A program made the position numbers and the translations under genes. From NCBI GenBank assembly GCA_029060215.1, contig JAIDUK010000033.1:1-64000 (forward strand): DNA of 64,000 nt, given 5' to 3'. This stretch comes from Alistipes sp. (GTDB lineage: Bacteria > Bacteroidota > Bacteroidia > Bacteroidales > Rikenellaceae). This document shows, one piece after another, positions 12,948-45,051 of this stretch. Below the pieces are notes generated by a model. The model worked only from the letters and a program-made list of their open reading frames with translations. It searched no databases and was not told where the DNA came from. Position 1 is the stretch's first letter, and every line of letters starts with the position of its first letter.

Positions 12948-12963
12948 GAAGTGGAGAATACGA
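12948..12963. repeat. attL: 16-bp copy of the tRNA-Ala 3' end
   Basis: gaagtggagaatacga here is identical to 44974-44989, which covers the 3' acceptor end of tRNA-Ala(GGC) plus four flanking bases. Identity stops on both sides, as expected for the crossover repeat created by tRNA-directed integration. Confidence 0.8.
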
Positions 12964-13022
12964 TTCGTGAACCCATCCTCCAAAATCCTTATTATCAAGG
13001 TGATAAATATGTCAATAATCGC

Positions 13023-13043
13023 GTAGTAACGCTTTTGTAACGG
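13023..13043. repeat. GTAACG repeats near the left end (putative integrase arm sites)
   Basis: Two GTAACG units occur in succession (gtagtaacgcttttgtaacg), spaced about like the three copies near the right end at 44808-44852. Matching subterminal repeats at both ends are typical arm-type binding sites of tyrosine integrases; that role here is inferred. Confidence 0.45.
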
Positions 13044-13171
13044 TTTCTTGTCGGCAATAGGCAAGCTATTGTCAGTCAAGTGTCTGCTCGTTTAGTTTAC
13101 TACAATGCAAAGATATACATTCTTATGAGATTTCCCAATAAAATAGTAAATGTATTTTTGAAACAAAGTAT

Positions 13172-13777
13172 TTAGCATGTCCTAAAAAGCTCATCTTTTC
13201 CCTGCGAAAAAGCATCCAAATAATTATAGGCAATTTGTATGTACTTTTCTTTGAACAGATGTTTTTTGCGGGGAGACCATTCCTGTATTTTAGAGATGGT
13301 TTGCATCAAATCAATACAAGGATTTTCTTTTCGGACATAAGCTACCGAGGCAAGTACTTCGAGAGACAATGCCGATTGAAATCCTGTTATCAATTTAATC
13401 AACTGTTTCAGTCGCGCAATTTGTTCCGGTTTCAACTTGGTTTTTACGTACTCGCTGACTTCTTTCATGGTGCTGTATTGCAATTCTAACGCATCGAAAG
13501 CACCGATATTCATTTGCTCAAGCCCTTTGAGGTATTTCCCATTCACATCATGGAGAATATGTCCTACTTGCGGGCAATAAGGCCCATAATGGGTTACAGC
13601 GAAGTTCAACTTCCCGAACGATGGTTCACCGAGAAGCTGCATGAAGTAGGCTAATTTGTTTGCAACGAACAAACTGCTGTTTTCACCCAAAGACTCGTAG
13701 TAGAATAATGCATATAGCAACAAGGCTCTGGCTGGAGTCAGTTTTGCTTCCTTATGATTGGTTTCTCGTTTTAACAA
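13172..13777 (-). CDS. DarG C-terminal-domain-like fragment (antitoxin remnant)
   Basis: The translated 201 residues resemble the region that follows the macro domain in DarG, the antitoxin of the DarT DNA ADP-ribosyltransferase. Visible features are KLTPARALLLYALFYYESLG, then LFVANKLAYFMQLLGEP and HYGPYCPQVGHILHDVNGKY, a pattern also reminiscent of Panacea (DUF4065) antitoxin domains. The macro domain (the ADP-ribosyl glycohydrolase) is missing. The frame has no ATG, only a TTG at 13777, and an in-frame TAA lies about 35 bases upstream. No DarT gene is in the window. It may be a 5'-truncated relic or a stand-alone inhibitor domain. It lies 120 bases after the radical SAM gene in the same direction, at the extreme left of the ICE. 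Confidence 0.55.
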   Translation of the reverse strand: MLKRETNHKEAKLTPARALLLYALFYYESLGENSSLFVANKLAYFMQLLGEPSFGKLNFAVTHYGPYCPQVGHILHDVNGKYLKGLEQMNIGAFDALELQYSTMKEVSEYVKTKLKPEQIARLKQLIKLITGFQSALSLEVLASVAYVRKENPCIDLMQTISKIQEWSPRKKHLFKEKYIQIAYNYLDAFSQGKDELFRTC

Positions 13778-13898
13778 TTCGCTGACAGCTTTGTTAGTTG
13801 GACATTTCCGATATTAATATAGTTCGGATCGCAAGTTGCGCTCATCATTAACGGATGCAATTTTAATCATTGCATCAGAAAGATCTGTTATTTCAATA

Positions 13899-15839
13899 TC
13901 AATAATTCATTTTAAATTTATTATATGAACTATACCGACCGGATTCATCAAAATCTTTTTTGAGTTTGTACAGGTCTGATCTTGGGTCAGCAATATCTCC
14001 GCGATAATTCTTATAGAATTGCAATATATGCAGATACTTTTTGTTATCCGTCAACTCTTCTATGTGGTTAAAGTCATTCTTAAAGATTATCGGATATAGT
14101 TCTGCTCGCTCTGCATTAGTCAACTCTGACATCGCTTTCCGCCACTCCTGAGTATACCCTAAATATTCAAAGAAGAACCTGAACAATAGAAATGTCTCAG
14201 GCATAATGAGCAATTCCATATACTCCTCTTCATTGCGACCAAAGGCTTTCTCAAAGAAGGAAACACCTCTGCCTATTTTACCTTTAGTAGCATTGAGAAT
14301 AGCTTGAACAGCACGGATATATTTGCGATTCCAATACTTACCTATATAATCCCTGTCGTGGCTATGTTCACCTGTAATTGGGTGATACTTCATCGGGAAT
14401 GAATATATGCTAACATTTAATTTTTCACATAGATCCACATTTATTCGCATACGATGATACAATTCTTCCGGCTTATCGGTAAAATTGTAGAGAAGGTAAT
14501 TGGAAAAGTCTTTCATTCCATACTTTTCACTCATCTTAATAGCCTTCGTATATTCAGGTTCTGTTTTAATATTATCGAATGCTATACGAAGTGGACGTAC
14601 CGGTATCTCTGCCAATAATTTAACAATACGCCTATTAAATAATCTTGCATCAACCCCTTGATTGAAGTCTACAAAACGCAGGCGCCCAAAACGTTTCTTG
14701 AACTTAACATCAAAATAAGGTGCAAAATCCTTATATGTAGCGATCAACGCTTCACGGGTGCAAGTTTCGGGATGCAAAAGCCCATGTTTTTCTCGTAATG
14801 CATATATTTCAGTTCTCGTATTTTCGTTGAACGATTGGAAGGTGCTAAGTTCTTGTAGCAGCTTGAAAGATTTGCAAATGTACGCACGGTTATTGATTCC
14901 TAGCCGAAGATTCCTGATAGCGATTGTATACCAATTCGGCTCAAAATATTTAGCTCCTTTTGTAAACCCACAAGATTTGATGTCCTCGATAATGTCTTCT
15001 AATCTGTTTGAGGCTAACACATTATTGTCCATCAGCAAAAGATTTTGCTGCTCGCCATAAAGTCTCCGTGTTCGATCAATGCGCTCCCGTAAAGGCAAAT
15101 ATTCTTGATATTCTGGTTCAATGCGCCATACTGCACAAAAAGAACACTTGCGAATACAGCCTCTTGTAGAGTAGCTGTAATATGCACCACTATCTGGATA
15201 GACATAATCTATCTCATCAAGGATAGAGTAATCCAACGGCAGTTCATCAATAATATATGGATTATCTTTGTCAATATCTTTATACGGTGTATGGAGTGTG
15301 CCGATATGAGGACGAATGCCTGTCGCCTTTTCAATCTCATCCGGTTGGATAGATGCCATTACACCTCCAACCATAATGTTCTTCGTATCTTTCACCATTG
15401 ATTTTGCAAACTCAATAGTCTCAATGGTGATATCCCAATAGAAAGTAAATAGCGTTGTTACTCCAATCCAATCCCAACGAGGGTATTTCTTATACTCTCC
15501 TGAATGGTAGAATTTCTTATAATATTCGACCCAAGGTTCTAATATCGGAGCAATCTCGGAATCCTCAATGCCTACCTGTTCTAAATACGCATACTTCCTA
15601 TATCTGATATATAGAGCAATTTTGTCTGAACGCAGCTTCCAGTTTATGGAGCCGTCAAGATCTGACAGTTTTGCCACGCATTCCTCGGTGATTTGATTGA
15701 TAACAAACTCTTTCAAATCCCCTTTGTAAAAGACGACATCATCTCCACGCAACCTAAAATAGGTCGCGAGTTTCATTAGCCCGATTGGAGGAAATTTATT
15801 CTTGTAATTGGGCTCAAGCAGTAATACCCGGCGATTCAT
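13899..15839 (-). CDS. Radical SAM protein with N-terminal Rossmann-like (B12-binding-type) domain
   Basis: This 646-residue protein begins RRVLLLEPNYKNKFPPIGLMKLATYFRLRGDDV, the opening of the cobalamin-binding-type Rossmann fold seen in B12-dependent radical SAM enzymes. No DxHxxG cobalamin motif is visible, so B12 binding is doubtful. The radical SAM core carries CxxxCxxC at Cys228, Cys232 and Cys235 (TRGCIRKCSFC), which should hold the 4Fe-4S cluster. The remaining 350 residues include a long helical C-terminal region without a SPASM-like cysteine cluster. The substrate is unknown. Its ATG overlaps the stop of the upstream GHKL ATPase gene by 4 bases, so both are probably translationally coupled in the NurA-HerA-GHKL operon. 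Base composition is AT-rich compared with the tra genes. Confidence 0.8.
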   Translation of the reverse strand: MNRRVLLLEPNYKNKFPPIGLMKLATYFRLRGDDVVFYKGDLKEFVINQITEECVAKLSDLDGSINWKLRSDKIALYIRYRKYAYLEQVGIEDSEIAPILEPWVEYYKKFYHSGEYKKYPRWDWIGVTTLFTFYWDITIETIEFAKSMVKDTKNIMVGGVMASIQPDEIEKATGIRPHIGTLHTPYKDIDKDNPYIIDELPLDYSILDEIDYVYPDSGAYYSYSTRGCIRKCSFCAVWRIEPEYQEYLPLRERIDRTRRLYGEQQNLLLMDNNVLASNRLEDIIEDIKSCGFTKGAKYFEPNWYTIAIRNLRLGINNRAYICKSFKLLQELSTFQSFNENTRTEIYALREKHGLLHPETCTREALIATYKDFAPYFDVKFKKRFGRLRFVDFNQGVDARLFNRRIVKLLAEIPVRPLRIAFDNIKTEPEYTKAIKMSEKYGMKDFSNYLLYNFTDKPEELYHRMRINVDLCEKLNVSIYSFPMKYHPITGEHSHDRDYIGKYWNRKYIRAVQAILNATKGKIGRGVSFFEKAFGRNEEEYMELLIMPETFLLFRFFFEYLGYTQEWRKAMSELTNAERAELYPIIFKNDFNHIEELTDNKKYLHILQFYKNYRGDIADPRSDLYKLKKDFDESGRYSSYNKFKMNY

Positions 15840-17410
15840 CGCGTCAAATCCTCCTCGATAACTTTTATCAGAGCATCTCTTTGACGCTCATCAGGTATAG
15901 CATTCGCAATAGACGCATATATCCGTCCAATGAGTTTTCGTTCAGCCTTACTAAACCGTGAGTATGTAGGACTATCTGTTCTAAATTTCGTTTTCTCGGT
16001 TGTTTCTTGTCCTTCTGGTTTTGGCGGGACAGATTTAAATGAATCATCTTTCTGTTCCGCTTTGGGAGTTAAATTATCAATAATCTTTTTGAGAGAAGAA
16101 TCTGTTTCTTCTATCTTTTGCTTTTTGCGTTCAAGTTGTTTTAGTGCCTCATCAGACTTCCGCTTATAGTCTTCAAGTTGTTGCTGCAAATCCTCTTTCT
16201 CCTTTGTGGAGAAATAGCTATCCTTCTGCTTTATCTTTTCCTCGATTTCCTCTTTTTTGGCGATTATCTTTAAGTTCTTATTGATATCTGATGCGTCATA
16301 GCATAATTCTCGAAGTTTTAGAAAATTCTGTTTTACGCTTTTTTCAAATGAGGCAAGTGCGGCATTTTCCCCAAAATAATCTCTACGCGAGTTCGGAATA
16401 AGATCTTTGCTTATAGCATGAATTTCCCCGAAATAATAAAATGAGAATCGCTGGTCAGATGTGTTAGCAAAGAATTTTTTGCAGATTTCCTCATCGCCAA
16501 TCTGAATATTCTCTTTACGCAATCGAATACCACGAGCGATATTCTTCTGCTTCATCTGTCCTTTCAGTCGAGACAACGAATACCATCCCCAATAAATAAT
16601 ATTGCCATTATCATCCTTTGAAAGCAGAAAGTCTACTCCGAGAATATCATCGACTTTTTTCTTCCCGCCCTGATTGTCTTCGTAGATGCCGGGCGTGTAT
16701 GGCTTATAAATTTGCTCTCCGTTGATGTAAATATTATAAATATCGACTTTTAAACCATTTTCCCTCGCAAATTCATTGATCTGGTAACGATAATAAAATT
16801 GCGAGGATATATCAACAGGCGCAACCATCGAGAGATAATTCTTGACGCGCTCAACATTGAGCAATTCGTCAGAGGTTACATTTTCCAGAATAACCTTGAA
16901 ATAGTGTTTATCCGACGCCTCTTTTTTTGTAATAGTGCCTGTTACACGTGCCAAAACATCAACCGCCTCTTCCGAATTATCGCGGTCATTGATAATTTGC
17001 TTTAAGAGGTCTGCATCCCAAGTCATAATTGATTTGACTTCCTCGTCGACATATGAGGTTTCAAATATCAATTTTGAACAATAGCCCAATCCGCCTAAAC
17101 GACCAATGCCTCGAAATCCTTTATCTTCTCCTCTTTTCTTTGTCGAATGAGCAATGTTCCTTAGAATAGGAATGACCTTGTCAGATGATATCCCTGTTGC
17201 GTTGTCTTCAATAATAATACAACGTTCTTCGGGGCTAATAGTAATGTGAATCTCATCTTCACCTGCATTTATCAGCCCTTCAGCAACAGCCTTATCAACT
17301 TGATCCGCAGAGTTCTGTATATATTCTCGATATATAAATCGACAATCTTCATACATACCGAGAGTTAAGGATTCTATAACATCTTTTCCTATTCTTGGGT
17401 TATCAGTCAT
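15836..17410 (-). CDS. GHKL (Hsp90/MutL/MORC-like) ATPase
   Basis: This 524-residue protein has an N-terminal ATP-binding fold with the three GHKL motifs: ExxxN in REYIQNSADQ (Glu29, Asn33), DxxxG in EDNATG (Asp69, Gly73) and the glycine-rich lid GFRGIGRLGGLG (98-109). A transducer-like region follows to about 370. Residues about 385-455 are a charged, heptad-like helix likely to form a coiled coil. The C-terminal 50 residues form a separate helical tail. Such proteins act as ATP-gated clamps or switches on DNA or protein partners, and MutL/MORC-like ATPases recur in anti-phage systems. It follows HerA by 6 bases and overlaps the radical SAM gene by 4. The molecular role is inferred only from the family. 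Confidence 0.82.
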   Translation of the reverse strand: MTDNPRIGKDVIESLTLGMYEDCRFIYREYIQNSADQVDKAVAEGLINAGEDEIHITISPEERCIIIEDNATGISSDKVIPILRNIAHSTKKRGEDKGFRGIGRLGGLGYCSKLIFETSYVDEEVKSIMTWDADLLKQIINDRDNSEEAVDVLARVTGTITKKEASDKHYFKVILENVTSDELLNVERVKNYLSMVAPVDISSQFYYRYQINEFARENGLKVDIYNIYINGEQIYKPYTPGIYEDNQGGKKKVDDILGVDFLLSKDDNGNIIYWGWYSLSRLKGQMKQKNIARGIRLRKENIQIGDEEICKKFFANTSDQRFSFYYFGEIHAISKDLIPNSRRDYFGENAALASFEKSVKQNFLKLRELCYDASDINKNLKIIAKKEEIEEKIKQKDSYFSTKEKEDLQQQLEDYKRKSDEALKQLERKKQKIEETDSSLKKIIDNLTPKAEQKDDSFKSVPPKPEGQETTEKTKFRTDSPTYSRFSKAERKLIGRIYASIANAIPDERQRDALIKVIEEDLTR

Positions 17411-17416
17411 AGCGGT

Positions 17417-19090
17417 TTAATCAAAATATTTATAGATAGGTAGCGGGAATTTTATATTTAGCATGGAACGAAATATAGGATTTTGAATAATGTATTCACC
17501 TTGTTTCATTCTGGTCAGCATTGTCTTATACACACTGGGGACAAAGCGGAAATCTTCGCGTGATATCTCTATCGCGTTTGTCCGACCAAATGCCTGTGTC
17601 GCACAGTTTCCTTTTATTCGGCGGTGTATATCGCTAACAAATTGCTCTGCTCCAAATAATACAATACCTAACGAGCGACCTCGTTCAGTGATGTCAAGCA
17701 ACTGATGGAGGATGGGTGAGGATTTTGGAACATCCGTAGATGCGTATTTGTTCAACTCATCAATAAAGATTACTATGCGGTCAGGAATATCGGAATCTAC
17801 ACGGTTCGTAGAACCCAACTTGAGATTATAGACTGCTCGCATAACATCGCCGAAAACAAAGCCTTGTGATTCTTCGTCAAGTTTAGCAACATCAATTACC
17901 ATCACATCATTTTTACCAATCTTTGCAATTTGGTCACGGAGACGGACTCCATTTCCTAATTGATTGGTAAACATCTGCTGACATTTTTGATAACTTTTAT
18001 TGAATAGGCGAAAGAATTTACGCCAACTCATCACGGAAATCTCATTGTCTCCACCTTTGCTATTTTTTCCAGCCTGAGTTTTTTGAGATAGTTCGTTCTT
18101 GAAATCCTCCCAATTATCTATACCGCCAAAACCCTTACTATTCGATAATATAGTATTGATGATTGACTCTATTGTGTCATTAGGGTCGTCAACATTGGCA
18201 AACAACAGGTCAAGACATTCTTTATCCTCGTCTGTTTCAAATAGATATTTATATTGCAATGCATTCCCAGCATCAAGCCGAGTCTTTATAACATCTTCTT
18301 TTTCGTAAGTGTAAGAAGTAAGATCTTTTGAATATGGATAAAAGTATTTTACCTGTTTGAATGGCTCTAACTCCAATGCTAATATATCATAGATGGGTTT
18401 TATCTTTTTCAGTTCATCCTTGCGAGTGTTCTTCTGGTCAATCTTCAGCAAATCCGTACCCTTTACGTTCATCATGATGAAAGCAACAGACTCTTTCTTA
18501 TCTTTAGCTGCATAATCTTGGATTGCTTTCATCAGGAACATGGCATATGAGGTCTTGGAAGCTAAACCGGATATACCAGATATGTTTAAATGCGCACCCT
18601 CCGGCCCAATAAGGAAATGGGAGTTGAAAAATACCGGAAGCGTCTGCTTGTTTGCGCCTTCATACATTTCGATATATCCAGCCGGAAGTTTATGTTTCAC
18701 ATTATTCAAGCCAAGAGCCTCCATTATCTCATCGCGTTCGGCGAGATATACTTTTCTACCCTCCTGAACAGGAATGTAGATATTCTTCGTGTTGCCTACT
18801 ACTTTACACTTCACATAGTTCATACCGATACGCTCTGTGTATGAAGTGGAATCCACCTGTCCAAAATCACTTGATATATAGCCGGCCAATGCACTTGGAG
18901 AATCCGTCATATGGGAGATTTCCTCAATCACACCAAATGTCTTTGTCGGTTCTCCATCTGTATCCTTTACATGCTCGACGACGACAACATCAAAAGGCTT
19001 TAATTTCAAATCCTTTCGAGTCCAAAAAGTAAACTCTTCAATCGTTGACGGCTGTTTCTCGGTTGCTATGATTTTGCCAATCGCTTCCAT
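17417..19090 (-). CDS. HerA-like DNA-translocating ATPase
   Basis: This 557-residue P-loop ATPase belongs to the HerA/FtsK class. An N-terminal beta-rich HAS-barrel-like domain covers about residues 1-140. The P-loop is GISGLASKTS (172-181), Walker B is IVIFIDEL (439-446), and a conserved segment ITERGRSLGIVLFGAEQF (467-484) holds the arginine and glutamine sensor positions. HerA rings pump DNA into their partner nuclease NurA. Here the gene lies 4 bases downstream of a NurA-like gene and 6 bases upstream of a GHKL ATPase, strongly suggesting a working complex. An insertion of about 100 residues (roughly 265-370) between Walker A and B separates it from minimal archaeal HerA. Confidence 0.85.
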   Translation of the reverse strand: MEAIGKIIATEKQPSTIEEFTFWTRKDLKLKPFDVVVVEHVKDTDGEPTKTFGVIEEISHMTDSPSALAGYISSDFGQVDSTSYTERIGMNYVKCKVVGNTKNIYIPVQEGRKVYLAERDEIMEALGLNNVKHKLPAGYIEMYEGANKQTLPVFFNSHFLIGPEGAHLNISGISGLASKTSYAMFLMKAIQDYAAKDKKESVAFIMMNVKGTDLLKIDQKNTRKDELKKIKPIYDILALELEPFKQVKYFYPYSKDLTSYTYEKEDVIKTRLDAGNALQYKYLFETDEDKECLDLLFANVDDPNDTIESIINTILSNSKGFGGIDNWEDFKNELSQKTQAGKNSKGGDNEISVMSWRKFFRLFNKSYQKCQQMFTNQLGNGVRLRDQIAKIGKNDVMVIDVAKLDEESQGFVFGDVMRAVYNLKLGSTNRVDSDIPDRIVIFIDELNKYASTDVPKSSPILHQLLDITERGRSLGIVLFGAEQFVSDIHRRIKGNCATQAFGRTNAIEISREDFRFVPSVYKTMLTRMKQGEYIIQNPIFRSMLNIKFPLPIYKYFD

Positions 19091-19094
19091 GCCC

Positions 19095-20267
19095 TTAAAA
19101 TAAATTGATAAAACTTATATCACTCTTAAAACGGCTTTTACAATAACATTCAGTCATATAGACTGGATAAAGATGATTTGCCCATCGAGCATCATTGCCA
19201 TAACAAACCGGGTTACGTTCATTTATGATGTTAGCTGTAATCATATCTATTTCATCAGATTCAAGCCCGTTTTCTGCTTCTGTACCAGTCATAAGCATTT
19301 TTTCAATCTTTAAGATGCCAGAGTAAGGGGTTGTTGTATATTTACGATCTCGAATCCGTACATACCAAATGGCGAAATTTACATTTCCCCATTCCTCTCC
19401 CGGTTTCCACATAAAGGCAGGCGTCCGATAGAATAACGGCAGTTTCGCAATTTGTCCCGCACTGCTTTGATTTTTATTATCTTTCATCAGATTGGGATTA
19501 AACCGTTTAGACACACCGACTACATGCCGATAGTTGTTGCGAATTCGTGCCAATTCTTTATAATCGCCCGTTTTCATGGGCTTATATTGTATTGAGCCAT
19601 CTTTGATAAGATAGTGCTCTTGCGTAAGCAAATGCTTACTCATCATCTCGGCCACAATGCGCTTTTCGCATTCAATCATCTCATCTTGAATTCGGGCGAT
19701 GCCTTTGTTTTCAAGGGTTTCATTGCCTTCAATCTTCGTTAAGTAGGAAAGCACTTTCCCAAACTTGTTTCCGGAGTTCTTAATAAAAGGCAACTCGTTT
19801 AGCTTGTTACACAGATTATTAAAATATACTCCATTATCGATACCTTCATCGTTAGCTGTTACTGGTAAGCAAACTACCGGATATGCTTCTTCGAAAACTT
19901 TACCAAAATTGCGAAACGTATTGTCATCGTTCATTTCTCTGCCACAGCAGGAAACGGATATTTGACCGCTAACAATTGGGAATACTTTTTTATCATATTG
20001 TATATCATCAACCTTATAGACTCGGCGCGAACCATCAAGAAAGAATTTGAACAGTGGAGGCATTGCTTTCATCTTTTCAGCCAACGGTCTCATATCTCTC
20101 ATTTGAGAGTCATGTATGCTCTCTGCAAATTCTTTCATATTGATATATGAATCCTCTCTCGCCTCGTATTCAATATTCGGGGGCAACACATTGTCATAGC
20201 AATACTTGAACGACGCAAAACATTCGCCTTGCGTTTCCTTTGCTATATAGTCCAAAAGTTTGCCCAT
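19095..20267 (-). CDS. NurA-like nuclease
   Basis: This 390-residue protein has NurA-domain features: FFLDGSRRVYKVDD with the metal-binding Asp-Gly-Ser at 78-80, a second IKDGS at 221-225, the VVGVSKRF signature at 249-256 and a C-terminal WANHLYPVYMTECYCKSRF-like motif. NurA is a Mn-dependent single-strand endonuclease and 5'-3' exonuclease that works inside a HerA ring. It is the first gene of a tight operon (spacings of 4, 6 and -4 bases) with HerA, GHKL ATPase and radical SAM genes. No Mre11 or Rad50 is present, which argues against the archaeal end-resection role and for a defence role. The upstream promoter is weak: only TTCCTTTG is seen near 20295. Confidence 0.78.
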   Translation of the reverse strand: MGKLLDYIAKETQGECFASFKYCYDNVLPPNIEYEAREDSYINMKEFAESIHDSQMRDMRPLAEKMKAMPPLFKFFLDGSRRVYKVDDIQYDKKVFPIVSGQISVSCCGREMNDDNTFRNFGKVFEEAYPVVCLPVTANDEGIDNGVYFNNLCNKLNELPFIKNSGNKFGKVLSYLTKIEGNETLENKGIARIQDEMIECEKRIVAEMMSKHLLTQEHYLIKDGSIQYKPMKTGDYKELARIRNNYRHVVGVSKRFNPNLMKDNKNQSSAGQIAKLPLFYRTPAFMWKPGEEWGNVNFAIWYVRIRDRKYTTTPYSGILKIEKMLMTGTEAENGLESDEIDMITANIINERNPVCYGNDARWANHLYPVYMTECYCKSRFKSDISFINLF

Positions 20268-20326
20268 ACTTTTTATACTTTATTGCATCCCAAAGGAACT
20301 TATCTATTCCCAGAAATATGGATTAG

Positions 20327-20596
20327 TTACAAAAATAATAAATTTTCTATTTGCTGATACATACAACATTTGCTATTTCTTTTCAATTTAAGATAATGCC
20401 GCACCTCACTCAAAAGCACGACTAAGGTACTGGCGAACGCACCGCTGGAAAGCGTAAAAAAGAGATCATTGGATATCCAATCGGATTGTACAATGATTAA
20501 CTTCATTTCCGCATTGATGAAGATGAAGTAAGTCAGTATCATGAGTATTCCCGACAAAAATATCAGAAACCTAATCATTTTCACACTTGCGCTCAT
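20327..20596 (-). CDS. Small two-helix membrane protein, possibly truncated
   Basis: These 89 residues contain two hydrophobic segments (about 8-28 and 45-65) followed by a basic amphipathic stretch SEVRHYLKLKRNSK and then a stop. The arrangement (two helices, FASTLVVLLSEV, then a positively charged helix) looks like the N-terminus of larger Bacteroides ICE membrane proteins with a cytoplasmic helical tail, so it may be cut short. It lies 60 bases before the NurA gene, same strand, and could belong to the candidate defence operon as a membrane component. Function unknown. Confidence 0.5.
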   Translation of the reverse strand: MSASVKMIRFLIFLSGILMILTYFIFINAEMKLIIVQSDWISNDLFFTLSSGAFASTLVVLLSEVRHYLKLKRNSKCCMYQQIENLLFL

Positions 20597-20622: not shown

Positions 20623-21807
20623 TCAGAAGAGTTTCCGTATATCCATCGATAGAAACTCCTCGGCACTTATACCGCCATCTCCGACGATCAAAGTCGTTCG
20701 AGGGGTGAATATCCTTTTGAATGTTTCCAGTCCAGCCGTATTTTTCTCGGCATTACTCTTGACCTCTATGGCGACGACCGAACCTTTCTTGCGCAGCACG
20801 AAATCCACTTCGTCGTTGCGTTCTCGCCAGTAGAAGACCTCGAACCGATGCACAAACGCTTGGCTGATGATATATGCTCCGATTCCCGATTCGAAAACAT
20901 GTCCCCAAACTTTGCGGTCGAGGATTGTTTGCTCAAATGTATTGGGGTTGTATATTGTTTTCAGTGCATTGTTGTAGACCTGAAATTTAGGGATGCTCGA
21001 TCTTCTGCGAGCTGTGTCGATGCTATACTTCTGCAATCCATTCAGCATTCCTGATTCGTCTAACAACTGAACATAGCCTGCCAGTGTGGCAGTGTTACCT
21101 GCGTCCTGCAATGCCCCCAACATTTTTGTCAACGATAAGAGTTGTCCGGAATAGGCAGCACCCAATTCGAAAGTCTGACGCAGCAAAGCCGGCTTGCCGA
21201 TGGGGGTATCCATCAGAATATCTTTGTTAATAGTTGCCTCCACAATGGCTGACTGAATGTACTGCCGATACCGTTCTTCGTCGCCAATAAGGGACGCTGC
21301 ACCCGGGTAGCCGCCGTAAAAGAGGTACTGGTCGAGCGTAAATCCGAAACTGTCCCGCATCTCGGAATAACTCCAATGCGTCATCCGAATTTCCTCGAAA
21401 CGGCCGCCTAACGACTCCGAAAGTCCTTTCTCCAGCAATACACGGCTGCTGCCGAGCAGCAAAACTTTTATATTGCGGTCGTGGAAAGTGTCGTCATCCC
21501 ATTCTTTTTTGACAACCTCACTCCAATTGTATATTTTCTGTATCTCATCGATAACAAGAAGTATACTTTCCTGTCCTCGACTCTCTTTCAGACTACGCAC
21601 GGCAGCCCAACAATTCGATACCCACGCGCTGTTCGTCGCAGGAACATTGTCGGCAGAATAGAATTGGTAAGGTATGTCCAACTCCTGCAAGACCTGTTTC
21701 ACGATGGTCGATTTACCCACTTGGCGGGGCCCCATAACAACCTGAATGAACTTGCGTGGTTCTTCAATACGTTTCCTAATTGTAAGATATTCAATTCTTT
21801 TATACAT
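20623..21807 (-). CDS. AAA ATPase with DUF4143 domain
   Basis: This 394-residue protein has an AAA_14 ATPase domain with Walker A GPRQVGKST (26-34) and Walker B LLVIDEIQK. The C-terminal DUF4143 domain has a PD-(D/E)XK-like core (RNDEVDFVLRKKGSVVAIEVKS). Such proteins are abundant in Bacteroidales and often carried on mobile elements; the function is not established, with roles suggested in element maintenance or toxin-like modules. It has its own promoter-operator region at 21830-21858 and stops 27 bases before the small membrane protein gene, so transcription may continue into the NurA-HerA operon. Confidence 0.85.
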   Translation of the reverse strand: MYKRIEYLTIRKRIEEPRKFIQVVMGPRQVGKSTIVKQVLQELDIPYQFYSADNVPATNSAWVSNCWAAVRSLKESRGQESILLVIDEIQKIYNWSEVVKKEWDDDTFHDRNIKVLLLGSSRVLLEKGLSESLGGRFEEIRMTHWSYSEMRDSFGFTLDQYLFYGGYPGAASLIGDEERYRQYIQSAIVEATINKDILMDTPIGKPALLRQTFELGAAYSGQLLSLTKMLGALQDAGNTATLAGYVQLLDESGMLNGLQKYSIDTARRRSSIPKFQVYNNALKTIYNPNTFEQTILDRKVWGHVFESGIGAYIISQAFVHRFEVFYWRERNDEVDFVLRKKGSVVAIEVKSNAEKNTAGLETFKRIFTPRTTLIVGDGGISAEEFLSMDIRKLF

Positions 21808-21829
21808 GTATTTACATTTTACGCAGCGT

Positions 21830-21858
21830 ATTGCGTATATTTACGCAATGCAAATATA
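21830..21858 (-). promoter_or_regulatory. Promoter and palindromic operator of the AAA/DUF4143 gene
   Basis: On the minus strand a TATATTTG -7 box (21851-21858) is followed at once by an inverted repeat, attgcgta (21830-21837) with tacgcaat (21842-21849). A further half-site, acgcagcgta, lies at 21821-21830. The palindrome sits where a repressor would block initiation, 23 bases before the ATG. Confidence 0.45.
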
Positions 21859-22221
21859 GTGATAAAATTTATATGAATACGCTTGATTCATTTAGAATAT
21901 TAACAAATCACTCAGGGTATTACGAACCGCTGTTCTGAAAAACGACTAAGAGCAAAAGGATAAACTTTCTTAACAAGTAACAAGCAGTCGAGAGATTATG
22001 CGCTTGACAAATAGTTAAAATATACGGGAACTTTACGGTATCATTCGGCTGCCCCGATCCCCTGATAATAATTATAGTAATTGGCAATTATACCACATTG
22101 CTTTTTTCAATATTACCGTTTCGAATCTGCCTAATAATTCGTTTACCTCCATTTTGCTGTCTTCCTATCGTGCCGTGTCGTCGTTACGTTGCCGGTGCGA
22201 AGGTGTTTACGAGGTCTTCAC

Positions 22222-22312
22222 GGACGTACAAGGTCGAGCCTTGCGGTTCGGCGAAAAATCTTCCCTGCGTCCTGCGGTTGCGAGGTATTTTTCGTCGAAA
22301 CCTTGTACGTCC
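22222..22312 (+). ncRNA. Large imperfect RNA hairpin upstream of the small accessory genes
   Basis: The outer arms ggacgtacaaggt (22222-22234) and accttgtacgtcc (22300-22312) pair perfectly over 13 bp. They continue after a 12-base bulge into ttcggcgaaaaat (22247-22259) with atttttcgtcgaa (22287-22299), one G-U pair. The apical loop is about 27 bases. It lies in the 656-base gap between the leftward AAA gene and the rightward accessory genes, about 150 bases before the first ATG. The overlapping 96-codon frame (22098-22388) looks spurious. Possible roles are structured leader, regulatory RNA or transfer-related site. The strand is chosen only by the direction of the downstream genes. Confidence 0.45.
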
Positions 22313-22463
22313 TAACCTCTACACCGGAAAGCCCCTGAAACGAAACGACCGATACGACCGAAAGACGCATAAAAAAAATGTCGGATAAACGAGAGGCAGA
22401 TTAGGATAAGAAACTCACTTCCTCCACTCTCAAATCCGCATCAAATTCAAAAAAGCAGCAGAC

Positions 22464-22667
22464 ATGAAAGCGATAAAGATTTTCAAAACAGCATTACGCG
22501 CCCTTGCAGCCGTACCGTGTGCCCTTGTGCTTTGGGTGGTGTATTTCATCGTCGGGATGATCGAAGCCCTGTTAAGCGGCGTGTTGCAAATCGTGTGGGG
22601 TATTGTCCTGTTCGGTGTCTCTCTCGCAGCCGTCATTGGGGCTTTCGTATGGATATTAACGCTTTAA
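22464..22667 (+). CDS. Small membrane protein (ICE accessory)
   Basis: These 67 residues form a short basic N-terminus followed by two hydrophobic helices (about 14-40 and 42-66), with almost no soluble part. It is the first of six same-strand small genes in the ICE accessory cluster. I do not recognise a function; similar short membrane proteins accompany many Bacteroidales conjugative elements. Confidence 0.6.
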   Translation: MKAIKIFKTALRALAAVPCALVLWVVYFIVGMIEALLSGVLQIVWGIVLFGVSLAAVIGAFVWILTL

Positions 22668-22679
22668 TTTAGACAGATT

Positions 22680-22937
22680 ATGAATGTAACAATCGAATCA
22701 TCCTTTTGTCCTTATTGCGACGAAGTAACGGAGATCTATTTCCGTCTTACAAATACGATTCTTTTCGCCAGCAACGAAACCGAACTGCGGCGAGGTATCG
22801 AGAATCTGCGAACCAAAGTTTCGCTCGACGACTATTTCGTGTACGGCTACGGCTCGCACCATCTGTGGGTACACCAGCGCAAGGTCAGCGACCAGACGCA
22901 GCCGTTCAGACACAGACTATTGAAAGCAGAATTTTAA
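22680..22937 (+). CDS. Small accessory protein with CPYC motif
   Basis: This is an 85-residue soluble protein. It has an N-terminal Cys-x-x-Cys (SFCPYCDEV) that could bind metal or act in redox, followed by a mixed alpha/beta region. It starts 12 bases after the small membrane gene and precedes the DUF3873-like gene by 14 bases. No function is recognised. Confidence 0.6.
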   Translation: MNVTIESSFCPYCDEVTEIYFRLTNTILFASNETELRRGIENLRTKVSLDDYFVYGYGSHHLWVHQRKVSDQTQPFRHRLLKAEF

Positions 22938-22951
22938 CCCCTTAAAACACT

Positions 22952-23188
22952 ATGACACTGGAAACAAGAATGACGATAAACGGCGTGTCGGTATGCCCGA
23001 CGGGAGAGGAACGACACGAGTATTTCACCCTTGCCTTCGCCCGCAGGACGAAGAAGCGGTTCTGCCAATACGATTACCGCCATACGGACGGCGAATTGTT
23101 CTCATGCGTCGCTCCGACTTTGGAGGAGTGCCGCCGCAAGCGGGATGAGTGGTTGCAACGTAAAACGGATAAGGAGACAAGACGATGA
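22952..23188 (+). CDS. DUF3873-like small protein
   Basis: This is a 78-residue basic protein. The pattern TINGVSVCPTGEERHEYF...FCQYDYRHTDGELFSCVAPTLEECRRKRDEW resembles the DUF3873 proteins common on Bacteroides conjugative transposons. The stop overlaps the next ATG by 4 bases, indicating translational coupling. Function unknown. Confidence 0.7.
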   Translation: MTLETRMTINGVSVCPTGEERHEYFTLAFARRTKKRFCQYDYRHTDGELFSCVAPTLEECRRKRDEWLQRKTDKETRR

Positions 23189-43045: not shown

Positions 43046-43675
43046 ATGCAACAAGAAGATGATTTGAGGGCATTGGCGAAAATCATGGATTTTCTGCGGG
43101 CCGTAAGTATATTGTTAGTCGTGATGAATATCTATTGGTATTGTTACGAGTCGATTCTCGCGTGGGGCGTGAATATCGGCGTGGTCGATAAAATCCTGAT
43201 GAATTTCGACCGCACAGCGCATCTGTTCCACTCCATGCTCTACACGAAGTTCTTTGCCGTCGTGCTGCTCGGCCTCTCGTGCTTGGGCACGATGGGCGTG
43301 AAAGACGAGAAGATAACATGGCTGCGAATCGGCACGGCACTCGCTGCGGGCTTCGTGCTGTTTTTTCTGAATGGGTGGCTGCTGGCTTTGCCGTTCCCGC
43401 TTACGGCGACAATGCTGCTCTATGTCGCAACGACGACCGCAGGGTATGTCTGCCTGCTGATGGCCGGATTATGGGCGAGCCGGCTTTTGAAGAACAACCT
43501 CATGGACGACGTGTTCAATAACGAAAACGAATCCTTTCAGCAGGAAACACGTCTCCTGACCAACGAATATTCCGTGAATCTGCCTACGCGCTTCTACTAT
43601 CGCAAGCGGTGGAACAGAGGTTGGATCAATATTGTAAATCCGTTCCGCGCTACGATCGTGCTGGGGACGCCGGTC
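43046..43675 (+). pseudogene. mobC: Coupling protein MobC (TraG/VirD4-like), truncated inside Walker A
   Basis: The first 209 residues match the N-terminus of the Bacteroidetes type IV coupling protein. There is a YWFCY-type membrane domain (IYWYCYESILAWGVNIGVV), four hydrophobic helices, then INIVNPFRATIVLGTP, which normally continues into the Walker A GTPGSGKS. Here the sequence changes at about 43672, exactly at GTP, into antisense integrase DNA. The frame then runs on meaninglessly to 44374. About two thirds of the protein, including the whole ATPase, is missing, so self-transfer should be blocked. Confidence 0.85.
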
Positions 43676-44674
43676 GGCAATCTCTTTCAGATACGAATTG
43701 AGTTTCTGATTACTCAGTACAGGCAGCAATCGACCGTCGGGCAGCGTTCCTTCGTATTTCTTCAAAAGCATTTCAGGTACTTTCAGCAGCGGCACGTTTA
43801 CCGGCGTCTGCGTCTTATGTCTGTGCGTCATGATCCACAGCTTGCCGTCGAACGAGGTGCGGATATTTTCTTGGGTCAGATTCCGTACGTCGATATAGGC
43901 CAATCCCGTAAAGCACGCGAAGATAAATACGTCACGCACTTGTTCCAGCCGTACGCACGGCATCTTCTTTTGAAGAATGCGTTGCAGTTCTTCTTCGGTC
44001 AGATAGCCGCGGTCTACTTTCTTCAACCGGATGCGATAGTTGGCGAACGGATCGTTGAAGATCCAGCCGTTGTTCTTCGCCTCGATGATAATCATGCGGA
44101 GCGTTTGCAGAAACTTGGCCGCTGTATTTTGACAGCATTGCTTTTCCGTCCGCAGATATTGTTCGAAGCTCACAAGAAACGAATGCGTTACTTCTTTCAG
44201 TGCCACATCTTTCACCCGATATTTCGTTTGAATGAACTCTTCCACTCTTCGGAAGCAGCGGTCGTATTTGCGATAAGTGGCCGCACTCTTGCTGATGCCT
44301 ACCAGCTTCTGTACATCTTCGTTATGTCTGCGGAATGTTCCCAGCAGCGTTTGCTGGCGAATCGTTATCCCTAAAAAGGCGTTACGTACCTTTTCCGCCG
44401 TTACATAGGCTTCGTATTTCTCGATTTCCCGATAGTGGTTGCGTAGGCTCGTCCGTATTTCGTCGAGCAGCGCGTTGAACTCGCGTGCGGCTTTCGTCGT
44501 GCCGAGCATCTTTTGATTCGTCGCATCCCACAGCTCCGGCTCGATGTCCAGCTTCGAGCTGAATTGTACGGATTCGCCATTAACCGAGACTCGAATCATA
44601 ATGCCCGCTTTACCAGCTCTGTTTACTTGATTCTTTCGGGCATAGAAAAGAATCGTGAATGTGCTTTTGCTCAT
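43671..44674 (-). pseudogene. int: Tyrosine integrase, C-terminal catalytic part deleted
   Basis: From MSKSTFTILFYARKNQ (44674) about 333 residues of a phage-type integrase remain. They comprise the N-terminal arm-binding domain, a SAM-like core-binding domain (SAATYRKYDRCFRRVEEFIQTKY) and the first part of the catalytic domain (FACFTGLAYIDVRNLTQENI; like IntDOT, it lacks the usual Arg in this box). The gene is authentic to KLNSYLKEIAD, then runs into antisense mobC at about 43672 and stops at 43469. The downstream HxxR box and nucleophilic Tyr are gone, so it cannot catalyse strand exchange. It lies directly beside the tRNA attachment site. Confidence 0.87.
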
Positions 44675-44807
44675 AATACCTCTCGTTTTGTTCCCGCCGG
44701 GCGATTTCTGTAACGAATCGCTGCCGGCAAAGAACCGGTTAATAATTGGTTTATGAGCAGACACTGTCAGGACAATAGGCGACAAATCAGCGACTTGCAT
44801 CGTAAAT

Positions 44808-44941: not shown

Positions 44942-44977
44942 TGTCTTTGATTGGCTCCGATTTGTCTCGGATCGAAG

Positions 44978-45051
<74 letters not shown>

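What the first reader, a model, noticed from the sequence alone, without database searches (positions are those of the whole stretch)
13899..20267. Candidate defence operon: NurA nuclease, HerA ATPase, GHKL ATPase and radical SAM protein
Four genes lie on one strand with spacings of 4, 6 and -4 bases, are AT-rich compared with the surrounding element, and sit in the cargo end of an ICE. Seen directly: NurA DGS motifs, HerA Walker A/B, the three GHKL motifs and CxxxCxxC. Known: HerA-NurA forms a DNA-pumping nuclease, and both HerA partners and MutL-like GHKL ATPases recur in anti-phage systems. I know of no named system combining them with a radical SAM enzyme. Inference: GHKL may act as sensor or clamp, HerA-NurA as effector, and the radical SAM protein may modify nucleic acid or a peptide to label self or arm the system.
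Basis: partly seen in the sequence, partly recalled or inferred. Interest (0 to 1): 0.87.

Follow-up and report, generated by a model that had tools for sequence, protein, structure and literature searches.

The report
Radical-SAM DNA-shredding defence operon
Four genes on a mobile element of a gut bacterium, kept together in the same order in many other bacteria, are predicted to form a defence machine in which a DNA-pumping nuclease would shred invading DNA and a radical-SAM enzyme likely marks the cell's own nucleic acid; no named system with these four parts turned up in the libraries searched.

Summary
NurA, HerA, GHKL and radical-SAM (rSAM) genes lie on one strand with gaps of 4, 6 and -4 bases, at one end of a ~32-kb conjugative element in tRNA-Ala. 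NurA is confirmed by profile and fold. HerA matches Deinococcus HerA. The GHKL is Hsp90/HtpG-type. The rSAM has the fold of B12-type enzymes.

Of the 80 closest rSAM loci in named genomes, 61 carry NurA-HerA-GHKL-rSAM contiguously. In 295 order-wide genomes rSAM and NurA each occur in 11, together in 8 (p = 2e-11). AbiP2, patatin or Schlafen-type genes can sit directly behind rSAM. In alphaproteobacterial plasmids the rSAM-GHKL pair follows a DndB-like gene; a distant phage rSAM branch lies among replication genes. Both point to DNA as its field of action.

Best reading: a restriction-like anti-invader system with HerA-NurA as DNA-degrading effector, GHKL as ATP switch and rSAM as nucleic-acid-marking enzyme. 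Defence role and chemistry are inferred, not shown. Searches of open papers showed no such named system. New variant of a known kind.

The parts
19095..20267 (-). NurA nuclease (390 aa), first gene of the operon
17417..19090 (-). HerA translocase ATPase (557 aa)
   Evidence: PDB 7f6d_B HerA E 9.7e-41 alone, 1.8e-58 by profile; K179, T180, D213, D444, E445 66/66
15836..17410 (-). GHKL ATPase (524 aa), Hsp90/HtpG-type N-terminal domain, variable C-terminal part
   Evidence: Pfam HATPase_c_3 7.3e-10; profile vs PDB best HtpG 8.4e-14; least conserved of the four, median identity 30% among 66 loci
13899..15839 (-). Radical SAM enzyme (646 aa) with N-terminal Rossmann (B12-binding-like) domain; C228xxxC232xxC235; overlaps the GHKL gene by 4 bases
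   Evidence: Pfam Radical_SAM 2.6e-5 and B12-binding 1e-4, both below the curated cut-off; phrog_9298 radical SAM 1.1e-37; model pLDDT 89.9; fold nearest TsrM, MgmA, AprD4, OxsB, MiaB
13172..13777 (-). Fifth gene, variable position: stand-alone C-terminal half of the DarG antitoxin (201 aa), 122 bases behind rSAM
   Evidence: PADLOC DarG 6.4e-36, model 153-326/329; NCBIfam NF048014 7.5e-37, model 159-338/338, 127.4 bits against cut-off 250; in the survey loci found only in the window and L014
12948..12963 (+). Direct repeat, one end of the integrated element, 208 bases beyond the fifth gene
   Evidence: the match to L014 begins at 12953
44974..44989 (+). Direct repeat at the 3' end of tRNA-Ala, other end of the element
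43469..44800 (-). Tyrosine-recombinase-like integrase next to tRNA-Ala
   Evidence: assigned by reading the translation, not by a family search

Best explanation
This is a four-gene operon, NurA-HerA-GHKL-radical SAM, that is predicted to act as a restriction-like anti-invader system in which HerA likely pumps double-stranded DNA into the NurA nuclease while the radical-SAM enzyme would mark nucleic acid and so separate self from non-self. Shown here: the four genes, their order, the NurA-like predicted fold, the kept catalytic residues, and co-inheritance. Inferred: the GHKL ATPase is an ATP-driven switch or clamp that gates HerA-NurA on DNA lacking (or bearing) the mark. Inferred: the radical-SAM enzyme acts on DNA bases or on DNA being replicated. 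Inferred: the variable gene behind the rSAM (here a DarG C-terminal domain; elsewhere AbiP2, patatin, Schlafen-type or large HTH-like proteins) is an accessory or back-up effector or a regulator. I give about 0.75 to a defence or anti-invader role and about 0.5 to DNA as the rSAM target, given that role.
For: 61 of 80 closest rSAM loci carry NurA-HerA-GHKL-rSAM contiguously, GHKL-rSAM gap most often -4 (32 of 61). Distances of the four proteins correlate over 66 loci (r 0.756-0.969, 0 of 999 permutations as high). rSAM 11/295 and NurA 11/295 genomes of the order, both in 8 (6 of these on one contig, G121 and G219 on two), Fisher p 2e-11; none of 36 same-genus relatives matched the rSAM: rare, patchy, linked. 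A phylum-wide sample gives 6 of 395 genomes with rSAM; of the 5 other than the window's own, 3 have all four genes, 1 has HerA and GHKL but no NurA, 1 only an rSAM piece. Tail genes overlapping rSAM: AbiP2 3e-182 (L015), patatin 4e-24 (L045), SLFN_AlbA_2 2.6e-16 (L060). Flanks hold PDC-S01/AAA_14, RhuM, Fic, AbiEii, DUF1016, IS21 genes, each in few of 149 proteins. Element ends and empty sites. DNA as target: DGQHR/DndB-like gene next to rSAM-GHKL in 4 of 4 alphaproteobacterial plasmid loci read (PF14072 shown for L008) and a DndB-domain gene before a lone rSAM (L099); phage branch beside DnaB, clamp and ParB-like genes. Archaeal HerA-NurA degrades both dsDNA strands and its authors suggest a possible defence role (PMC12977600, passages).
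Against: No phage or plasmid challenge, no DNA analysis. The rSAM model resembles enzymes acting on proteins, RNA and small molecules alike, so its fold does not tell the substrate. Cobalamin binding is untested. The 80 loci are those most like the window's rSAM (445 found, best 80 kept), which favours like architectures. Exceptions: L083 (same contig as L197 by length) has no NurA, L089 no open GHKL frame, G093/L162 has rSAM and GHKL with other genes in place of HerA-NurA. The tail gene is optional: 42 of 80 have one within 20 bases (some only 61-136 aa), 17 of 80 none on that strand. The phage-neighbour and flank counts have no background control, and the commonest phage family, phrog_498 (named DNA methylase), also matches ParB-like proteins, so part of its 8 hits may be those. 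HerA-NurA could equally serve repair.
Confidence: 0.5

Rival explanations
1. The rSAM does not mark DNA but makes a small molecule (a modified nucleotide, as viperin or OxsB do) or modifies a partner protein, and that product arms or triggers GHKL and HerA-NurA.
Against: MgmA (a protein methylase), AprD4 and TsrM score higher than OxsB, MiaB (tRNA) about equal. The rSAM neighbours in Alphaproteobacteria and phages include DNA-acting proteins. No widely conserved short peptide gene: largest shared cluster 4 loci, of 69 upstream and 68 downstream regions.
Confidence: 0.2
2. A DNA repair or element-maintenance operon: HerA-NurA resects breaks, GHKL acts as a MutL/Hsp90-like helper, and the rSAM repairs a lesion (like spore photoproduct lyase) or aids replication of the mobile element.
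For: Bacterial HerA-NurA has been studied as end-resection machinery (PMC9960219, abstract start and passages); the phage rSAM branch lies in replication modules; the operon lies in a conjugative element.
Against: Patchy presence (11 of 295 genomes) does not look like housekeeping repair; tail genes differ from locus to locus and some are defence-like; the carriers differ: of the loci compared, only L014 matches the window over a long stretch beyond the operon (L039 has two short matches in the element's far half).
Confidence: 0.17
3. A type IV-like system: GHKL/HerA-NurA attack DNA that carries a phage-type modification, and the rSAM strips or converts that modification, or the phage rSAM homologues are the cognate modifiers.
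For: Phages encode a distant branch of the same rSAM family (phrog_9298) inside replication modules.
Against: No direct evidence of any phage base made by these rSAMs; the phage contigs and the hosts of the operon were not shown to meet.
Confidence: 0.08

Closest known systems
HerA-NurA complex (Deinococcus 7f6d; Thermococcus 9x1m; Sulfolobus NurA 2ygk)
   Same: NurA fold and kept acidic and histidine residues, HerA ATPase motifs, adjacent genes
   Different: Here HerA-NurA is joined to GHKL and rSAM genes with overlapping or near-overlapping frames; Walker A is non-canonical; carried on mobile elements
TdpAB (8wet, 8wfd); recalled as the restriction part of the Tdp phosphorothioation-based system of thermophiles
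   Different: Here a radical-SAM enzyme and a GHKL ATPase stand where Tdp has, as recalled, the modification enzyme TdpC; no TdpC profile was available to test
HerA-Sir2 and HerA-DUF anti-phage pairs
   Same: HerA paired with an effector enzyme in phage defence (seen in the listing for PMC11291478 and in passages of PMC12926258 and PMC12977600)
   Different: Effector here is NurA, and GHKL and rSAM are added
Dnd / DndB systems
   Same: A DndB-like (DGQHR) gene precedes the rSAM in the alphaproteobacterial cousins
   Different: No Dnd protein match among the seven window proteins scanned, apart from a weak coiled-coil PbeC match of the GHKL (0.017)
DarTG
   Same: Fifth gene equals the C-terminal half of DarG
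   Different: Macrodomain half is missing; no DarT match among the seven proteins scanned

Membership tests
NurA nuclease | NurA (RNase H-like) fold | tested here: met
NurA nuclease | Conserved acidic and histidine residues of the active site | tested here: met
   D78, E201, D223, H365 66/66; equating them with the catalytic residues of known NurAs is recalled
HerA translocase | HerA sequence family with Walker A lysine and Walker B DE | tested here: met
   7f6d_B E 1.8e-58; K179, T180, D444, E445 66/66; the Deinococcus counterparts K175, T176, D487, E488 are from PMC9960219
HerA-NurA complex | Physical complex with ATP-dependent nuclease activity | not testable with these tools
   needs proteins
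GHKL ATPase (Hsp90/HtpG-type) | Bergerat-fold motifs | tested here: met
   HATPase_c_3 above cut-off; HtpG 8.4e-14; D69, G73, G101, G103 66/66
B12-type radical SAM | CxxxCxxC plus N-terminal Rossmann domain before the barrel | tested here: met
B12-type radical SAM | Cobalamin binding | not testable with these tools
   AprD4 and MiaB share the fold and, as recalled, bind no B12
DarTG | DarG with macrodomain, next to DarT | tested here: not met
   only model positions 159-338 match, 127 of 250 bits; no DarT among the seven proteins scanned
MADS | several mad genes side by side | tested here: not met
   only a partial mad8 match by HerA, 6.3e-9; no other mad model among the seven adjoining proteins; the rest of the window was not scanned
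Dnd phosphorothioation | DndB-E proteins beside the operon | tested here: not met
   no Dnd match among the seven adjoining window proteins; the rest of the window was not scanned
Tdp | TdpC modification enzyme next to TdpAB | not tested
   no TdpC model or usable paper was found
Anti-phage defence system | Measured protection | not testable with these tools
   needs phage or plasmid challenge

The most novel reading that the evidence does not exclude
A new class of restriction-modification: a B12-type radical-SAM enzyme writes a carbon-centred mark on self DNA, a GHKL ATPase reads it, and HerA-NurA pumps in and shreds DNA without it. The rSAM-GHKL pair is a portable reader-writer core whose effector is swapped (HerA-NurA in Bacteroidota and others, PIN or SNF2 modules with a DndB-like protein in Alphaproteobacteria), and phages carry the same writer inside their replication modules.
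Probability: 0.33. Interest if true: 0.92.

Novelty: new variant of a known kind. Interest (0 to 1): 0.75.

Why it matters
HerA-NurA has long been filed under repair, and its role in defence is only now argued. A widespread operon that ties it to a radical-SAM enzyme and a GHKL ATPase gives a direct handle on that question and points at an unknown chemistry. If the rSAM modifies DNA, radical chemistry would join methylation, phosphorothioation and deazaguanine insertion as a way to mark self, and gut Bacteroidales would hold it in patchy, mobile form, where it could shape phage and plasmid traffic. It is testable with one mass-spectrometry run and one plating assay.

Tried and rejected
Considered and rejected: (1) chance neighbourhood of two modules: rejected by 61 of 80 contiguous loci and correlated distances. 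(2) Only this ICE lineage: rejected; the four-gene order recurs in loci titled Prevotella, Parabacteroides, Bacteroides, Phocaeicola, Alistipes, Victivallales and Clostridia, and with extra genes inserted in Aminicenantes (titles, order; many are MAGs and may be misbinned). (3) MutL-like GHKL: HtpG/Hsp90 is closer. (4) RiPP-like peptide substrate: no small ORF shared by more than 4 loci. (5) DarTG: macrodomain half absent. (6) Decayed operon: open frames and dN/dS 0.025-0.079 against L014.

Led nowhere: papers on Tdp (searches gave none usable); solved relatives of the rSAM by sequence (best RimO 0.059); the 330-aa and 271-aa accessory proteins have no assignment; L162 (rSAM, GHKL, then 645- and 446-aa genes in place of HerA-NurA) was not followed. 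The promoter scan is uninformative. Of 182 flanking proteins I gave 149 to the family scans (150 drawn at random, one left out when typing the list). Of 158 phage neighbours the first 150 were scanned; duplicates L121, L140, L143 and L158 and loci without an rSAM call were dropped first. The list also holds terminase and HNH families, so those neighbourhoods are not of one kind. Absent families in the VIA lists exclude nothing.
Full report
WHAT IS THERE. GC per kilobase is 0.37-0.40 from 13 to 20 kb; most other kilobases are 0.54-0.66, and 20-26 kb is 0.40-0.54. A fifth gene on the same strand, 13172-13777, follows after 122 bases. It matches only the C-terminal half of DarG (PADLOC 6.4e-36; NCBIfam NF048014 model positions 159-338, 127 of the 250 bits needed).

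THE CARRIER. tRNA-Ala lies at 44977-45051. A 16-base exact repeat sits at 44974-44989, on its 3' end, and at 12948-12963, just beyond the fifth gene. Between them I read an integrase-like gene beside the tRNA, Tra-type genes and a relaxase-like gene (read by eye, no family scan). In three of 36 relatives of the genus (G013, G015, G025) matches to the two flanks lie 866, 651 and 207 bases apart on one contig instead of about 33 kb (places), that is, without the element; in the others the flanks lie on different contigs or farther apart. None of these 36 relatives matched the rSAM. A MAG titled Alistipes senegalensis (L014) matches 12953-20366 and 20628-23082 at 87 and 89% DNA identity. Against it the five genes show dN/dS 0.025-0.079, so they are intact and selected.

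CO-CONSERVATION. A scan of named genomes with the rSAM alignment gave 445 relatives, best 80 kept. Of these 61 have NurA-HerA-GHKL-rSAM contiguous on one strand; the GHKL-rSAM gap is -4 in 32 of the 61. The 19 others: nine with the contig starting shortly before the rSAM (L018, L021, L023, L033, L054, L065, L075, L084, L092; L065 still shows HerA and GHKL), two with less than 5 kb of contig upstream (L070, L090), L025 with a split GHKL frame, L019 with a broken HerA frame, four with all four genes but extra sequence between GHKL and rSAM (L081, L085, L088, L093), L083 without NurA and L089 without an open GHKL frame. In 66 loci (the window, L013, L095 and L108 among them) pairwise distances of the four proteins correlate (r 0.756 to 0.969; 0 of 999 permutations reach any). 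Median identities: GHKL 30%, NurA 40%, rSAM 53%, HerA 54%.

LESS BIASED SAMPLES. In 295 genomes drawn over the order the rSAM is in 11 (one, G330, a fragment) and this NurA in 11; both in 8, expected 0.4 (Fisher p 2.0e-11). In 6 of the 8 they share a contig; in G121 and G219 they lie on two. Of the three NurA-only genomes, two have NurA near a contig end (G306, G310) and one a truncated NurA (G170). rSAM without NurA: G093, G119 (contig end) and the G330 fragment. In 395 genomes over the phylum the rSAM is in 6; apart from the window's own, L198, L199 and L200 have all four genes, L197 has HerA and GHKL but no NurA, and L201 holds an rSAM piece only.

ARCHITECTURES. Core: NurA-HerA-GHKL-rSAM. 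Variant A inserts a second GHKL and a 330-aa protein of unknown fold before rSAM (for example L088, L165, L199); the 330-aa family was found in 8 survey loci. Variant B inserts an OLD-like AAA_15 ATPase (Pfam 3.8e-23), a 271-aa protein and a second GHKL (L093, L198); the AAA_15 and 271-aa genes were found in 7 loci, 5 after removing two that repeat a contig. Behind the rSAM, 42 of the 80 loci have a predicted gene within 20 bases (a few of only 61-136 aa), 6 within 20-100, 9 farther, 17 none on that strand, 6 end there. These tail genes differ: a family of large proteins with weak RNA-polymerase-alpha-CTD and sigma-type HTH matches (found in 26 survey loci), a 206-356-aa family (11 loci), AbiP2 reverse transcriptase (PADLOC 3e-182, L015), patatin (4e-24, L045), Schlafen/AlbA_2 with HATPase_c_4 (L060 overlapping; L062 and L048 107 and 158 bases behind), MazG (L037), RhuM (L025). 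Such swapping is typical of defence loci (general knowledge). Flanking genes (149 of 182 scanned) include PDC-S01/AAA_14 ATPases, RhuM, DUF1016, Fic, AbiEii and IS21 proteins, each in few: varied accessory regions, no single host element; no control was run.

BEYOND BACTEROIDOTA. Twelve plasmid records of Rhizobium, Mesorhizobium, Novosphingobium, Bradyrhizobium, Agrobacterium and Roseomonas hold an rSAM relative at 31.7-37.7% identity. I read four: in each the rSAM follows a gene annotated DGQHR (PF14072 DndB 1.8e-11 in L008) and overlaps a GHKL gene; three of the four also have a PIN-like gene beside a second GHKL, three have a DEAD/DEAH-type helicase (SNF2 by Pfam in L008), two of these with an annotated ParB-type gene. 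No HerA or NurA match was found among their genes compared or in the loci's frames. Marinitoga camini virus 1 has rSAM, HerA and NurA but no GHKL match. Phage contigs hold a distant branch (phrog_9298) beside DnaB helicase, polymerase clamp, ParB-like and exonuclease genes. Among 150 neighbours of 41 such loci the commonest families are phrog_498 (named DNA methylase, 8; it also matches ParB-like proteins), DnaB (6), DNA methylase phrog_67 (5), helicase phrog_16 (5), clamp (4), ParB (4); HNH and terminase families follow (no background control). One contig (L099) has a DndB-domain protein directly before the rSAM.

HOW IT LIKELY WORKS. Known biochemistry: the archaeal complex degrades both strands of dsDNA with ATP, and its authors think other roles, possibly defence, more likely than direct end resection (PMC12977600, passages read). 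TdpAB is, as I recall, the restriction half of a phosphorothioation-based system. The simplest model is that HerA-NurA is the DNA-shredding effector; GHKL, the least conserved and ATP-driven, is the switch or reader; the conserved rSAM supplies the mark; the tail gene is a back-up or regulator. The first part rests on homology; the GHKL role and the rSAM target are inference from neighbours. Rivals: a small-molecule or protein product of the rSAM, a repair role, and a type IV-like logic.

NOVELTY. No PADLOC v2 (2023) model matched NurA or rSAM, and only weak partial ones HerA and GHKL. Full-text searches: HerA + NurA + radical SAM + GHKL, 0 papers; DGQHR + radical SAM, 1 (passage); radical SAM + DNA modification + defense + DndB + phage, 3, one opened (PMC10853773, abstract and passages); HerA + NurA + anti-phage, 9, one opened (PMC12977600); radical SAM + HerA + defense system, 7, five opened for passages (PMC10853773, PMC4158269, PMC12926258, PMC11326445, PMC7159879); HerA + NurA + phosphorothio, 3, two opened (PMC9960219 and PMC12977600); HerA + GHKL + defense, 3, one opened (PMC7824862). 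None of the passages seen describes this set. Most subscription papers and later defence catalogues were not searchable. HerA-based defence is a known kind; the rSAM-GHKL coupling is the new part.

Noticed in passing
window 13172-13777: Stand-alone C-terminal half of DarG without macrodomain, and no DarT among the proteins scanned: an orphan antitoxin-like domain in the tail position of the operon.
   Followed up: partly
window 20623-21807: AAA_14/DUF4143 ATPase, PADLOC candidate PDC-S01 at 1.2e-183, 355 bases upstream of NurA; 6 of 149 flanking proteins of related loci also match PDC-S01.
   Followed up: partly
window 12948-12963 and 44974-44989: Ends of a ~32-kb conjugative element in tRNA-Ala; flanks adjacent in three of 36 relatives of the genus.
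   Followed up: yes
L010 11027-13336, L099 7654-9957: 769- and 767-aa DndB-domain proteins close to the rSAM; L010's also has a weak HEPN_Swt1 match (0.0008).
   Followed up: no
L110, L113, L120 (also L116, L137; L111 weakly): Phage rSAM genes followed by clamp-type genes (family of L110's phrog_947 protein), overlapping by a few bases in L110, L113 and L120; L111's neighbour has only a weak beta-clamp match (0.015). Possible replication-coupled radical chemistry in phages.
   Followed up: partly
L162 5745-9029: 645- and 446-aa genes stand upstream of GHKL-rSAM where HerA and NurA would be: a possible further effector swap.
   Followed up: no
L164 7793-11074: HerA is interrupted by a 428-aa frame on the other strand, possibly an inserted element.
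   Followed up: no
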